From Gammaproteobacteria bacterium (GTDB taxonomy: Bacteria; Pseudomonadota; Gammaproteobacteria; QNFE01), in contig QNFE01000014.1 in assembly GCA_003645455.1 (NCBI GenBank), positions 1 to 38,553 on the forward strand: a DNA stretch of 38,553 bases. Direction: 5' to 3'. Positions 6,089 through 10,062 of the stretch are shown here, piece after piece (the stretch's first letter is position 1; every line of letters starts with the position of its first letter). Under the pieces are notes generated by a model. It was not told the origin of the DNA. It searched no databases and worked only from the letters and a program-made list of their open reading frames with translations. The position numbers were made by a program, and so were the translations under genes.

Positions 6089-6185
6089 ACACAACAAAAA
6101 AGTTTTAAGTTGTAAGTTTTAAGTTTGCCGAAGTTAGTCATTGTTGCATTTGTATTTTTCTGTGTTATGATATAGTTTTTTTTAA

Positions 6186-6274
6186 GGAAGCTCTGATTAA
6201 CTGCCAAGAACAAACAACAAATGCAGTTATAGCAAGGGGACATGTCCCCTTGTTAGTGGTTAATCAGAGCTTCC
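6186..6274. mobile_element. Miniature inverted-repeat element, short form, with a 20-bp palindrome
   Basis: An 89-bp element with perfect 16-bp inverted repeats: ggaagctctgattaac at 6186-6201 and its complement at 6259-6274. It is flanked by TTAA on both sides (6182-6185, 6275-6278). The ends resemble those of the 406-567 element (ggaag-tctga-taac). The centre holds a perfect palindrome, caaggggacatgtccccttg, at 6233-6252; the same 20 bp recurs in the unrelated insertion at 6610-6706. It lies between thiC and the hicB-like gene. Confidence 0.8.
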
Positions 6275-6321
6275 TTAAACACAATAAGACCTTTGCATGA
6301 TTTATTAAATAAGGATAAAAT

Positions 6322-6525
6322 ATGAAAATAGACATTTTAATTTACAAAGCTCAAGAGGGAGGATACTGGGCAAAAGTGCCGGCTTTGTCAGGTTGTGTTT
6401 CAGAAGGAGAAACCAAAACAGAGGTATTATCCAACATTAAAGAGGCTGCATTAGGTTGGTTAGAAGTTGCCTCTGCAAGACACAAGAAATCTAAAATTGC
6501 CCAGCTTGTGCAAATGGATATATGA
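6322..6525 (+). CDS. HicB-like antitoxin (short, N-terminal domain only)
   Basis: 67 residues with the HicB/UPF0150 partial-RNase-H fold: an initial beta-strand (MKIDILIYK), GGYWAKVPALSGCVSEGETKTEVLSNIKEA, then a helix. No DNA-binding domain follows, as in many short HicB proteins. A ribosome site aagga lies 6 bases upstream. It overlaps the broken hicA gene by 4 bp (ATGA), in the order hicB-hicA, the reverse of the classical hicA-hicB order. Because the toxin is inactivated, this is probably an orphan antitoxin. Confidence 0.75.
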   Translation: MKIDILIYKAQEGGYWAKVPALSGCVSEGETKTEVLSNIKEAALGWLEVASARHKKSKIAQLVQMDI

Positions 6526-6822
6526 AAGCGATATCTGGAGCAAAATTTTGTAAACTTTTAAAACAAAATGGCTGGAAATTACAAAGGAATTCGTGGGAGT
6601 CATTATATTAAACTGGCAACAATAAACTTCTCTATTTTGACAAGGGGACATGTCCCCTTGTTGGTTCTTATGGGAAACTGAATACATGTATTTAACTGCC
6701 GAGTTAATATTTTTAGCAAAGACGGTAAAAAGGAAATATTGACAGTTCCAGTGCACGGCAACAAAGATTTAAAAATTGGCACCCTGAGTCAGTTGTTAAA
6801 AAATGCAGATTTAGTTTTATAA
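6522..6822 (+). pseudogene. hicA toxin gene broken by a frameshift and a 97-bp element
   Basis: Starts with MKAISGAKFCKLLKQNGWKL, the conserved HicA N-terminus. One extra A at about 6588-6589 shifts the frame; correcting it gives RIRGSHYI, including the catalytic His of the GSH motif. The frame is then interrupted at 6610-6706 and resumes with FSKDGKKEILTVPVHGN and DLKIGTLSQLLKNADLVL. Removing the 97-bp insert and one copy of its ATATT duplication, plus the extra A, leaves 66 codons: a 65-residue HicA of normal size. The encoded mRNA interferase is therefore inactive as read, unless the extra A is an assembly error and the insertion is recent. Confidence 0.82.
6610..6706. mobile_element. 97-bp insertion in hicA with a 5-bp target duplication
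   Basis: The element is bounded by direct repeats ATATT at 6605-6609 and 6707-6711. Its ends are imperfect inverted repeats: aaactggcaa on the left; the right end reads taactcggca when complemented. The middle contains the perfect palindrome caaggggacatgtccccttg (6641-6660), identical to that in the 89-bp element at 6186-6274. Excision restores the HicA reading S-H-Y-I-F-S-K-D exactly. The termini differ from the GGAAG elements, so this is a separate family. Confidence 0.8.
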
Positions 6823-6923: not shown

Positions 6924-7124
6924 ATGATGACACAAACAATGACACAACAAGAAATTCGCCAAACAGGCATAGAAATACTTAGCGAACACATTGGCGTAGT
7001 TGGTATGATTCGCTTCCTACAACAAAATGATTTAGGATATGGCAATTATACAAAAGATAAAGAATCCATATTAAAAGAATCGTCTGTTGAAGAGTTGGTA
7101 AAAAAAATTCAACAAACATATTGA
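6924..7124 (+). CDS. Small conserved protein of antitoxin-like context
   Basis: 66 residues: an N-terminal QQEIRQTGIEILSEHIGVVGMIRFLQQ helix-rich part followed by YGNYTKDKESI and an acidic-to-basic helix. I do not recognise a characterised family, although small proteins with the GVVGMIRFLQQ-x-GNYTK pattern are widespread. Its stop overlaps the start of the DUF2442 gene (TTGA). The pairing and the surrounding modules suggest a toxin-antitoxin-like two-gene unit, but neither partner has a proven activity, so the role is inference. Confidence 0.6.
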   Translation: MMTQTMTQQEIRQTGIEILSEHIGVVGMIRFLQQNDLGYGNYTKDKESILKESSVEELVKKIQQTY

Positions 7125-7366
7125 GACCTTTGCACAAAACAATTACACAGGTTAAAGCCACCGATGATTATAAATTAGTTTTATTATTTGGCAACAACGA
7201 GACACGGATTTTTGATGTTAATCCTCTTTTAAAATGGGGCAGATTTGCAGAACTTCAAGATATAAATATATTCAAAAAAGTTAGTGTATGTTTTGACACC
7301 ATTCAATGGGAAAATGGCTTAGATTTAGACCCTGAATATCTTTACAAAAAGAGCAAACAAACATAA
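7121..7366 (+). CDS. DUF2442 family protein
   Basis: 81 residues with the DUF2442 pattern: ITQVKATDDYKLVLLFGNNETRIFDVNPLL, a GRFAELQD turn, then FKKVSVCFDTIQWENGLDLDPEYLY. These small proteins often sit beside DUF4160 or antitoxin-like genes. The only start is TTG at 7121, overlapping the upstream stop. The first codons (gagacctttgca at 7122-7133) match the terminal sequence seen at 14698 and near 6287, so the original 5' end may have been replaced by an element remnant. Function unknown. Confidence 0.65.
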   Translation: MRPLHKTITQVKATDDYKLVLLFGNNETRIFDVNPLLKWGRFAELQDINIFKKVSVCFDTIQWENGLDLDPEYLYKKSKQT

Positions 7367-7417
7367 AACAAAATACAATTGAGTTTTTTAAAAACAACAA
7401 CAAAAGGTTAAAAAATT

Positions 7418-7633
7418 ATGAGTATAAAACAAGTTGAAAACAATGCTTTGAATTTAACCTCATCTCAAAGAGCAGCGTTGGCACACAAATTATTGATAAG
7501 TCTTGATATGCCAAACTCTTATGATGATGAAAATTCTATTTTAACAGAAATAAATCGCCGTGCAGATGAAATTGATAATGGCGAAGTTCAGTTGGTTTCA
7601 AGTGCGTCAGTTTCAAAAAAAGCCCATTTATAG
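7418..7633 (+). CDS. Addiction-module antitoxin (TIGR02574-like)
   Basis: 71 residues: NALNLTSSQRAALAHKLLISLDMP matches the N-terminal helix pair of the 'putative addiction module component' family, and EINRRADEIDNGEVQLVSS fits its C-terminal toxin-binding part. The final residues (SVSKKAHL) diverge from the usual ending. It is followed 5 bp later by a 16-residue stub of what looks like a ParE/RelE toxin, so the antitoxin appears to have lost its partner. Confidence 0.7.
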   Translation: MSIKQVENNALNLTSSQRAALAHKLLISLDMPNSYDDENSILTEINRRADEIDNGEVQLVSSASVSKKAHL

Positions 7634-7638
7634 ATAGA

Positions 7639-7689
7639 ATGAATTATTATTTTCATCCTCTTGCAACAGACAATAATTTAAAACTATAA
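7639..7689 (+). pseudogene. Stub of a ParE/RelE-type toxin
   Basis: Reads MNYYFHPLATDNNLKL then stop. The first nine residues are typical of the beta-strand that opens ParE/RelE toxins paired with TIGR02574 antitoxins (M-x-Y-x-F-H-P-x-A). The remaining ~80 residues are missing; no continuation is visible in other frames before the next gene. The position directly after the antitoxin supports the call. Short length keeps confidence moderate. Confidence 0.45.
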
Positions 7690-7778
7690 ATTAGCAACAT
7701 GTTATAATTCCAGTTTTTTAACACAACACAAAATATTAAATTTTTATGGTTAATGACAAATTAAATAGGTAAAAAATT

Positions 7779-8495
7779 ATGAGTATTATTAAAAAACTTT
7801 TTGAAAAAAGCAGCGATATTATTAAAGGTGATAATTTATCTGTTGACGAGATAAAAATGCAACTGGCAAAAAATAAAGCATCAGAGATGTTTTATGAAAA
7901 AGCTATGAGTGAAATTGCGGAGGACAACAAAAAACCAGGGATTTGGGCTCAGGCTATGACAGAGGCAAATTTTGATGAAAACTCTGCCCGTCAATCCTAT
8001 ATGAAAATCCGTGTTGCCTCTTTGCAAGATGAGGCAGTTGAAATGGCGATTAAAAAGCAAGAACAAGCCATAGAAAAACAAGAATTGGTGCAAAAATTTT
8101 TACAAAAACAAGAACAAGAATTGTTATTAAAACAAAAATTAAGAGATTTTACATTTATTGATAAAAACACAAATTTAATGTGGAAAAGACATCACGAGCC
8201 AAACAAAATGGACTGGGATAAGGCAATGGATTATGCAAAAAATCACGAATTTGCAGGATATGATGATTGGCATTTGCCGAGCATTGATGAGTTAAAAACT
8301 ATTGTAAAAAAAAGTAGGAAACCAACTATTGACTCCGAGGTATTTCCTAATACACCTGCCGACATTTTTTGGTCGTCAACACCAAGTTCCAATAATTCAA
8401 GCAATGCATGGTGGCTGGGTTTTATCAGTGGCTACAATCACAACGACTGTCGCACTAATTCCTACTATATTCGTTTGGTTCGCGCCGGAGAGTGA
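7779..8495 (+). CDS. DUF1566 (Lcl C-terminal domain) protein with coiled-coil linker
   Basis: 238 residues. The N-terminal part (1-70) is helical and unrecognised; 75-125 is a Gln/Glu/Lys coiled coil. The C-terminal 110 residues are a DUF1566/Lcl-type C-lectin-like domain: FIDKNTNLMWKR, then W-x-KAMDYA, GYDDWHLPSIDELKTIV, FPNTPADIFWSST and the closing YYIRLVRAGE. There is no signal peptide, so the protein is probably cytoplasmic. The stretch between FWSST and YIRLVR is Asn/Ser/Tyr/His-rich and encoded largely by NNY codons, reminiscent of diversity-generating-retroelement target regions, but no reverse transcriptase or template repeat is in the window. Confidence 0.7.
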   Translation: MSIIKKLFEKSSDIIKGDNLSVDEIKMQLAKNKASEMFYEKAMSEIAEDNKKPGIWAQAMTEANFDENSARQSYMKIRVASLQDEAVEMAIKKQEQAIEKQELVQKFLQKQEQELLLKQKLRDFTFIDKNTNLMWKRHHEPNKMDWDKAMDYAKNHEFAGYDDWHLPSIDELKTIVKKSRKPTIDSEVFPNTPADIFWSSTPSSNNSSNAWWLGFISGYNHNDCRTNSYYIRLVRAGE

Positions 8496-8564
8496 TTTTT
8501 TTTCTTTAATGCAAAAAATGAATTTAAAGCAAAACTCCTGCCATAACAAGCAAAACAAAAAAAA

Positions 8565-8685
8565 CGTCATCGCGAGGAGGAACAACGAAGCGATCTCATC
8601 GTAGTATACGGATAATTTTCAAGAGATTAACCACGGCGGTTAATTATTTGCCTTACATCGTTTTATCCGTCCGCCTCGTTATGAC
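8565..8685 (+). repeat. 121-bp dispersed intergenic repeat, copy 1
   Basis: Begins cgtcatcgcgagga and ends cgcctcgttatgac. The same 121-bp unit occurs inverted at 38086-38206, with shared blocks gaagcgatctcat, ccacggcggtt and ccgtccgcctcgttatgac. The 'GTCAT-GCGAGGA' type of sequence is a recurrent dispersed palindromic repeat in many Gram-negative genomes (general knowledge). It is GC-richer than its surroundings. With the flanking sequence it fills the 276 bp between the DUF1566 gene and the next fragment. Confidence 0.75.
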
Positions 8686-8771
8686 AGATTCTTTTTTTGT
8701 TCGGTAAGTTATGTAAGATTTAGTTATTTCATAGTCCTGTGGTGTAGGATTATAAAAAACAACAGATTTAA

Positions 8772-8894
8772 AAAAATGCCTACCAGCAAGCTTTTATAAA
8801 AATTAATTTACAAAAAGACAGCAATAAAGCTAAACCTTATCAAGTTAAACAGGTTCGTAATATTATTTTAAAATATAAACTAAGGGGTATTTAA
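8772..8894 (+). pseudogene. C-terminal fragment of a HicA-like small toxin
   Basis: An open frame without a proper start reads INLQKDSNKAKPYQVKQVRN then IILKYKLRGI and stop, 2 bp before the ATG of the next hicB-like gene. The AKPYQVK block closely resembles AKPYQIK in the 5'-truncated hicA fragment at 10055-10171, and the position directly before a hicB fits the hicA-hicB order. The N-terminal part is missing. The family assignment rests on this resemblance only. Confidence 0.45.
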
Positions 8895-8896
8895 TT

Positions 8897-9109
8897 ATGT
8901 ATAAATATGAAACTATTGTTTATTGGAGCGATGAAGATGATGCTTTTATTGCAGAGGTGCCACAACTTGCAGGTTGCACAGCACATGGTGCATCCGCCCA
9001 AAAAGCATTATCTAATGTTAATGAAGCCATCAAATTATGGATAGATACGGCACATGAATTTGGCGACAATATTCCTGAATGCAAAGGTCAAAGACTAATG
9101 TTGGCCTGA
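8897..9109 (+). CDS. HicB-like antitoxin
   Basis: 70 residues with the HicB fold signature: MYKYETIVYWSDEDDAFIAE then VPQLAGCTAHGASAQKALSNVNEAIKLWIDTA. A good ribosome site (aagggg) precedes the ATG by 9 bases. The partner upstream survives only as a C-terminal fragment. The protein ends before any DNA-binding domain. Likely an orphan antitoxin. Confidence 0.75.
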   Translation: MYKYETIVYWSDEDDAFIAEVPQLAGCTAHGASAQKALSNVNEAIKLWIDTAHEFGDNIPECKGQRLMLA

Positions 9110-9280
9110 TAAATCAAACAAATAAATGAGATATTTTTTGTTTTTTGTTTTTCAATTTACCAAAAAACAATAAAATTAAATTTGATAATTCGTTATAATA
9201 TTGAATTATTGATAAAAAATAAAATATGAAAATAATTAGAAAAATAAGAACAGTATCTTTAAATAAGCAGGGTTAAAATA

Positions 9281-9662
9281 ATGAAATATTTAATAGTAAT
9301 TGAAAAAACGGCAACTGGTTATTCTTCTTATTCGCCTGATATGGATGGGTGCATTGCCGCAGGCAAAACCACCGAAGAGGTTCAAAAAAATATGCAAGAG
9401 GCTTTGCAGTTTCATATTGATGGTTTAAAAGGAAGCTTATAAACAACTACGATAATCATTAAAACAGCCACTTTGCACTTACTTGCAATTTTTTAAAAAA
9501 GCCCACAGAACCTTGCTATAATGGGCTTTTAAAAAAAATCACAATTAAGCACAAATTGACTATTTTTCTAATCACCGCAGTTATTCATAAGCTTCCTAAA
9601 TGGAGCAAATTAAAAGACCGCAACCACATTCTTTTTCAAGTTTTGTGGAAGTTAGAGTATAA
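9281..9662 (+). pseudogene. HicB-family gene interrupted by a miniature element
   Basis: The 5' part (9281-9430) encodes MKYLIVIEKTATGYSSYSPD, a GCIAAGKTTEEVQKN block and QEALQFHIDGLK, a clear HicB domain. The frame then runs into the element at 9431 and stops as GSL at 9442. After the element, codons from 9600 read MEQIKRPQPHSFSSFVEVRV and stop at 9662, the normal HicB C-terminus. Joining the two parts gives a family-length protein of about 70 residues. Removing the element with TAAA (present on both sides) does not restore frame perfectly, so a small indel must also have occurred. A truncated 53-residue product may still be made. Confidence 0.8.
9431..9596. mobile_element. Miniature inverted-repeat element (MITE), copy 2, inside a hicB gene
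   Basis: 166 bp with inverted ends ggaagcttataaacaac (9431-9447) and gttattcataagcttcc (9580-9596), 15 of 17 paired. The interior matches the 406-567 element in several blocks: attaaaacagccacttt, agaaccttgctataa and cacaaattgactatttttct. It contains TGCTATAAT, an extended -10 promoter shape pointing right. TAAA occurs on both sides (9426-9429, 9597-9600) but is not a clean duplication. Confidence 0.85.
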
Positions 9663-9726
9663 AAATTTAATGCAACAAAAAAGGGCAAAATATTATTTCA
9701 ATAAAAGTATTTTTGTAAAATAATTT

Positions 9727-10062
9727 TCAAGCGACCGCCTCTTTTTGCAAAACATTACTCGCCCATTGATTGATGCTTTGATTATGTGATGAGGCAATGC
9801 TGGCAATATTTGCATGAACATCTGGTGTGAGACTTATAGTTAAATCGCCTGAAAAAGATTTTTGTGGTGTTTTGTCCGCCTTGTTGCAAGTTTGCAAATA
9901 ATCATCAACGGCTTCATAAAATGCCTCTTTTAGTTTTGCAACTGAGCTGGCATGAAAACCTACAATATCATCTATCCCATATAAATGCCCTATAAAACAA
10001 TCATCCTCTTCGCTAAATTCAATTTTTGCAGAGTAGTTTTTATATGTTAAAAAATTATTCAT
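9727..10062 (-). CDS. hicB: HicB antitoxin with C-terminal ribbon-helix-helix domain
   Basis: 111 residues and apparently complete. The N-terminal domain (about 5-58) has the HicB core: YSAKIEFSEEDDCFIGHLYG and FHASSVAKLKEAFYEAVDDYL. The C-terminal part, FSGDLTISLTPDVHANIASIA plus SINQWASNVLQ, is a ribbon-helix-helix DNA-binding domain, as in HicB_lk2-type proteins that repress their own operon. Its hicA partner upstream is reduced to a 3' fragment, so the antitoxin no longer has a local toxin. Confidence 0.85.
   Translation of the reverse strand: MNNFLTYKNYSAKIEFSEEDDCFIGHLYGIDDIVGFHASSVAKLKEAFYEAVDDYLQTCNKADKTPQKSFSGDLTISLTPDVHANIASIASSHNQSINQWASNVLQKEAVA

What the first reader, a model, noticed from the sequence alone, without database searches (positions are those of the whole stretch)
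6522..6822. hicA broken by a 97-bp element whose removal rebuilds a normal HicA
Exact ATATT duplications (6605-6609, 6707-6711) flank the insert. Deleting insert plus one duplication, and one extra A near 6588, yields a 65-residue HicA with all expected blocks. This captures a datable inactivation by a non-coding element, with a known target-site length of 5 bp that can help identify the transposase family.
Basis: seen in the sequence. Interest (0 to 1): 0.68.

Follow-up and report, generated by a model that had tools for sequence, protein, structure and literature searches.

The report
Toxin gene broken by mini-transposon
A bacterial toxin gene (hicA) is interrupted by a 100-bp mobile DNA element that lands at the two letters TA; about twenty relatives of it are scattered through the same genome, one of which has cut a CRISPR gene, so the event is real but of a well-known kind.

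Summary
In detail: hicA (start 6522) is interrupted by a foreign 102-bp net insertion, and a separate +1 frameshift lies upstream of it. The interpretation needs correcting. The insert belongs to a family of at least 14 near-full-length and several partial copies in the same genome. Aligning them shows the element is 100 bp (6608-6707), with imperfect 11-bp terminal inverted repeats (TTAAACTGGCA/TGCCGAGTTAA), flanked by a 2-bp TA duplication. The 5-bp ATATT is TA plus element ends plus chance; only 2 of 14 copies show it. The closest sibling (97%) interrupts cas1: removing 100 bp plus one TA gives a gapless 329-aa Cas1, while a TTAA duplication or no duplication does not. This makes it a Correia/RUP-like MITE, with IS630-type mobilisation inferred. 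No intact IS630 transposase was found, only one fragment. 'Datable' is not supported: the frameshift alone would kill hicA and the order is unknown. The element is not always destructive: its net 34 codons are read in frame in a type III methyltransferase and in a SoxB/5'-nucleotidase-like gene. Its palindromic core occurs 52 times, including inside a RAYT-like domain nested in a type IIG restriction gene; 7 of 8 coding sequences carrying it are DNA methyltransferases.

The parts
6181..6279 (.). second, different MITE-like element (type B; ends TTTAAGGAAGCTCTGATTAAC / GTTAATCAGAGCTTCCTTAAA) carrying the same palindromic core, 42 bp upstream of hicB
   Evidence: inverted ends and shared core seen in sequence; related copies elsewhere in the genome
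6322..6525 (+). hicB antitoxin, 67 aa, intact
   Evidence: PF15919 HicB_lk_antitox E 7.5e-7
6522..6587 (+). hicA 5' piece (22 codons)
   Evidence: PF07927 positions 2-17, E 0.038; start overlaps the hicB stop
6588..6594 (+). zone of the +1 frameshift in hicA
   Evidence: 7 nt where 6 are expected between the conserved Arg and GSH; frames compared
6606..6607 (+). left target TA
   Evidence: family alignment
6608..6707 (+). MITE, 100 bp; imperfect terminal inverted repeats 6608-6618 and 6697-6707
   Evidence: family alignment of copies; inverted arms 6605-6618/6697-6710
6640..6661 (.). 22-bp perfect palindrome ACAAGGGGACATGTCCCCTTGT in the centre of the MITE
   Evidence: I16; 52 genome-wide matches to its 18-bp core
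6708..6709 (+). right target TA (duplication)
   Evidence: family alignment
6710..6822 (+). hicA 3' piece with stop
   Evidence: PF07927 positions 25-58 of 58, E 3e-9 for 6712-6819

Best explanation
A non-autonomous 100-bp TA-targeting MITE of the Correia/RUP type, most likely mobilised by an IS630-family (Tc1/mariner-like) transposase, inserted at a TA inside hicA and duplicated it. The insertion plus a separate one-base frameshift leave hicA unable to encode full-length HicA while hicB stays intact. Shown: the insertion, the family, the ends, the TA duplication and that no full IS630 transposase was detected in this 98%-complete assembly. Inferred: mobilisation by an IS630-type enzyme that has since been lost, and loss of toxin activity.
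For: Copies with common termini TTAAACTGGCA...TGCCGAGTTAA and unrelated flanks; TA on both sides in 11 of 18, no longer duplication outside the conserved ends. The nearest sibling (97%) interrupts cas1, and taking out 100 bp plus one TA gives a 329-aa protein covering PF01867 1-283/283 (E 7e-68) with no gap at the junction; net 96 (TTAA) gives a stop and net 104 a frameshift. The HicA profile independently demands a net 102-bp insertion plus 1 base, and HicA paralogues in the genome show R-Q-K/R-G-S-H followed by two residues. An IS630 transposase fragment (NF033545 positions 28-110/299) directly abuts one MITE copy on C76.
Against: No autonomous element with the same ends was found: DDE_3 gave no hit and IS630 gave one fragment only. 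The assembly is in 83 contigs, and several copies lie near contig ends, so a multi-copy IS could be hidden in gaps. No empty hicA site in a related strain was available.
Confidence: 0.9

Rival explanations
1. One reading: a 97-bp element (6610-6706) from a transposase that makes 5-bp duplications (ATATT).
For: The 5-bp repeat is exact at this locus and gives the same net length of 102 bp.
Against: Only 2 of 14 copies show it in this register; the TT and A it counts as target are conserved element ends in the other copies; the cas1 copy has no 5-bp duplication yet restores exactly with TA.
Confidence: 0.03
2. The element is a protein-coding-compatible palindromic insert, as in Rickettsia palindromic elements, and hicA still makes a functional fused protein.
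For: Net insertion is 34 codons and antisense frames are open in most copies; sibling copies are read through in a type III methyltransferase ORF on C16 and a SoxB/5'-nucleotidase-like ORF on C46.
Against: In hicA the element lies in the orientation whose forward frames contain stops: TAA at 6609 in the start frame, and a TGA inside the element in the GSH frame; a frameshift is also present.
Confidence: 0.03
3. hicA was already a pseudogene from the frameshift, and the MITE landed neutrally in dead DNA.
For: The frameshift upstream of the MITE is sufficient on its own; the neighbourhood holds several HicB-type or addiction-module antitoxin genes for which I identified no adjacent toxin.
Against: The 3' hicA piece is still well conserved (E 3e-9), which suggests that decay is recent; nothing orders the two events. 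This rival changes the order of events, not the nature of the element.
Confidence: 0.4
4. Assembly or MAG artefact: a chimeric join at a repeat, and a sequencing error for the extra base.
For: Draft genome of 83 contigs, repeat-rich; no reads available.
Against: The two flanks are complementary parts of one HicA (profile 2-17 and 25-58) and the copy is distinct in sequence from every other copy. The extra base is not in a long homopolymer.
Confidence: 0.05

Closest known systems
Correia repeat enclosed elements / NEMIS (Neisseria), 107-bp form
   Same: About 100 bp, TIRs with terminal TA, target duplication, intragenic in-frame fusions reported (PMC2229807)
   Different: Different sequence; TIRs shorter and imperfect here (11 bp against 24 bp); core is a short perfect palindrome found independently elsewhere in the genome
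RUP (Streptococcus pneumoniae)
   Same: 107 bp, TA target, proposed mobilisation by IS630-Spn1 (PMC2229807)
   Different: No intact IS630 partner found here; RUP has stops in all six frames, whereas this family keeps antisense frames open
Rickettsia palindromic elements (RPE)
   Same: 105-146 bp, palindromic, found in frame inside protein genes (PMC2229807, PMC10969869)
   Different: TA ends and TA duplication clear here; unrelated sequence; only some copies are in frame
REP elements / RAYT (for the palindromic core only)
   Same: Short palindrome in about 50 copies, next to a REP-associated tyrosine transposase domain (NF047646)
   Different: Perfect palindrome without the GT(A/G)G head described for REPs (PMC2817692); the RAYT-like domain is nested inside a type IIG restriction enzyme gene

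Membership tests
TA-targeting MITE (Correia/RUP type) | Short multi-copy element without coding capacity for a transposase | tested here: met
   100 bp; at least 14 near-full-length copies plus partial ones
TA-targeting MITE (Correia/RUP type) | Terminal inverted repeats | tested here: met
   6608-6618 / 6697-6707, imperfect
TA-targeting MITE (Correia/RUP type) | TA target-site duplication | tested here: met
   TA on both sides in 11 of 18 copies; cas1 empty-site test
TA-targeting MITE (Correia/RUP type) | Autonomous IS with the same ends in the genome (usual, not defining) | tested here: inconclusive
   TIR scans and IS630 family searches found none, one IS630 fragment only; draft assembly, so absence is not proof
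Correia elements (CREE) proper | Neisseria-specific TIR sequence of about 24 bp | not tested
   TIR here is 11 bp, TTAAACTGGCA; the TIR length of CREE is from PMC2229807, sequences were not aligned
HicA toxin | PF07927 match with GSH motif | tested here: met
   Pieces match positions 2-17 (weakly) and 25-58; GSH at 6595-6603; gene is interrupted
Rickettsia palindromic element | In-frame insertion in a protein gene at this locus | tested here: not met
   Stops in the hicA frames; met for sibling copies on C16 and C46
REP (core palindrome) | GT(A/G)G head next to the palindrome | tested here: not met
   Contexts show no such head
REP (core palindrome) | Association with a RAYT gene | tested here: met
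   The only Y1 domain in the genome carries three tandem copies; functional link untested

The most novel reading that the evidence does not exclude
The palindromic core of the MITE is the mobile substrate of a RAYT-like transposase domain that is itself nested, in frame, inside a type IIG restriction-modification enzyme. This palindrome spreads into TA-MITEs and, in frame, preferentially into other restriction-modification genes, so that two unrelated mobility systems share one palindrome.
Probability: 0.2. Interest if true: 0.65.

Novelty: new member of a known kind. Interest (0 to 1): 0.33.

Why it matters
It corrects the duplication length, and with it the transposase family (TA, IS630-like, not a 5-bp duplicator). 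It gives a clean pair of sibling insertions in a toxin gene and in cas1, and shows that one MITE family can act both as a gene breaker and as a 34-codon in-frame cassette. The side observation, that nearly all coding sequences carrying the core palindrome are DNA methyltransferase genes and that one contains a RAYT-like domain, is less ordinary and worth following.

Tried and rejected
5-bp duplication: rejected by the family alignment and the cas1 site. TTAA duplication: equally consistent with the ends alone (14/14), rejected because it leaves a stop in cas1 and adds two residues to HicA. Naming the organism by a genome contigs pattern scan: four hits in unrelated phyla, judged chance matches for a 21-base AT-rich pattern. 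Relatives with an empty site: none in 35 other genomes, and no copies of the element in 368 others of the class. Rfam: nothing significant; one sub-threshold hit to a miRNA model over the type B element. A literature search for the palindrome string found nothing. The first HicA paralogue alignment used wrong reading frames for some loci and was repeated.

Full report
Observation. The window holds hicB (6322-6525) followed by hicA starting at 6522. The hicA 5' piece matches PF07927 weakly at positions 2-17 and the 3' piece strongly at 25-58. Pieces were searched apart. Between them lie 124 nt where the profile needs 21, so 103 nt are surplus: a 102-nt insertion plus one base. The GSH motif shares its frame with the 3' piece and not with the 5' piece, so the extra base lies in 6588-6594. 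The frame from 6522 ends after 29 codons at a TAA that begins in the element.

What the insert is. A DNA search of the same genome gives many copies. Those with well-kept ends were aligned with their flanks: nearly all share TTAAACTGGCA at the left and TGCCGAGTTAA at the right, with unrelated sequence beyond a TA on each side. The element here is 6608-6707 (100 bp) and the TAs are 6606-6607 and 6708-6709. TA is present on both sides in 11 of 18 copies examined, the others having altered or misregistered ends.

Decisive test of the duplication. Because the ends read TATTAA...TTAATA, a TTAA duplication would also fit the ends alone. The closest sibling (97% identical, contig C3) sits in cas1, beside what look like cas2 genes (cas2 by eye). 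Joining its flanks with one TA gives a 329-aa protein that covers the whole Cas1 profile (E 7e-68) and aligns to solved Cas1 without a gap at the junction. The TTAA model leaves a stop and the no-duplication model a frameshift. The hicA profile spacing independently asks for the same net 102 bp.

How it moved. TA duplication and size fit the Correia/RUP type of MITE, for RUP linked to IS630 (PMC2229807). A DDE_3 search found nothing. The IS630 model finds one fragment (positions 28-110 of 299), directly abutting a MITE copy on C76; on the other side of that copy lies a Gp49/RelE-like toxin gene (PF05973 E 2.3e-12) whose frame ends in the MITE. Mobilisation by a since-lost IS630 is therefore an inference, and a draft assembly in 83 contigs could hide a partner.

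Breaker and cassette. Of the six frames, forward frames usually contain stops and two antisense frames are open in most copies. hicA and cas1 carry the element in the forward orientation and are truncated. In contrast, a copy on C16 is read in frame in a type III methyltransferase ORF of at least 1030 codons, and a copy on C46 is read in frame near the start of a SoxB/5'-nucleotidase-like ORF, where it falls in what looks like the signal peptide (signal peptide by eye). A copy on C44 is fused to the start of a HAD-family ORF. An RHS-repeat ORF also ends in a copy. Whether the fused proteins work is not known.

The core palindrome. ACAAGGGGACATGTCCCCTTGT lies at the centre of the element. Its 18-bp core occurs 52 times in this genome and once in one of 398 other genomes of the phylum. 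It also sits in a different MITE-like element 42 bp upstream of hicB (6181-6279), alone between genes, and in frame in eight ORFs. Seven of the eight are DNA methyltransferase or type IIG/III restriction-modification genes by Pfam and PADLOC; the eighth (C55) has an NPPY motif but no family match. The only Y1 transposase domain found in the genome is REP-associated by NCBIfam (E 1.5e-12, below that model's curated cut-off). It is nested in frame inside one of these type IIG genes on C17 and carries three tandem palindromes. Some family copies have the same MITE ends but a different core (C42, C7, C17, C4). Whether the palindrome is a RAYT substrate is untested; it lacks the usual REP head (PMC2817692).

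Verdict. A real MITE insertion in hicA, correctly spotted, with wrong ends and duplication length and an over-reading as 'datable'. It is a new member of a known kind.

Noticed in passing
L054:1925-4630 (G000 C17), minus strand: A RAYT-like Y1 transposase domain is nested in frame inside an Eco57I-type IIG restriction-modification gene, with three tandem in-frame copies of the palindrome (54-bp period) and a 24-bp tandem array at the 5' end.
   Followed up: partly
L038, L045, L054, L061, L062, L063, L064, L065: All eight ORFs that carry the palindrome internally look like DNA methyltransferases / restriction-modification genes (seven by profile, one by NPPY motif only), read as peptides such as TRGHVPL or QGDMSPC.
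   Followed up: partly
L060:3053-3697 and G000 C3:63954-64057: cas1 interrupted by the closest sibling of the hicA element, next to cas2-like genes.
   Followed up: yes
L008:2-1816, minus strand: A MITE copy read in frame near the N terminus of a SoxB/5'-nucleotidase-like ORF, apparently within its signal peptide.
   Followed up: partly
window 6181-6279: A second MITE-like element with different ends but the same palindromic core, 42 bp upstream of hicB; it could affect hicBA expression.
   Followed up: partly
window 7121-10062: A cluster of antitoxin-like genes (Unstab_antitox 7418, HicB-like 8897, 9281 and 9727) for which I identified no adjacent toxin; a DUF2442 gene lies at 7121.
   Followed up: no
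L052:1189-1382 (C42), L049 (C7), L054:about 1600-1785 (C17), L056 (C4): Longer elements with the same MITE ends but a different core (GGAAGTGGTGC...CCACTTCCAA) in place of the palindrome.
   Followed up: no
L095:2117-2479 (C76): A Gp49/RelE-like toxin gene ends in a MITE copy whose other side abuts an IS630 transposase fragment.
   Followed up: partly
copies aligned: Core variants GGGGACATGTCCCC and GGGGGCATGCCCCC differ by paired changes that keep the palindrome perfect.
   Followed up: no
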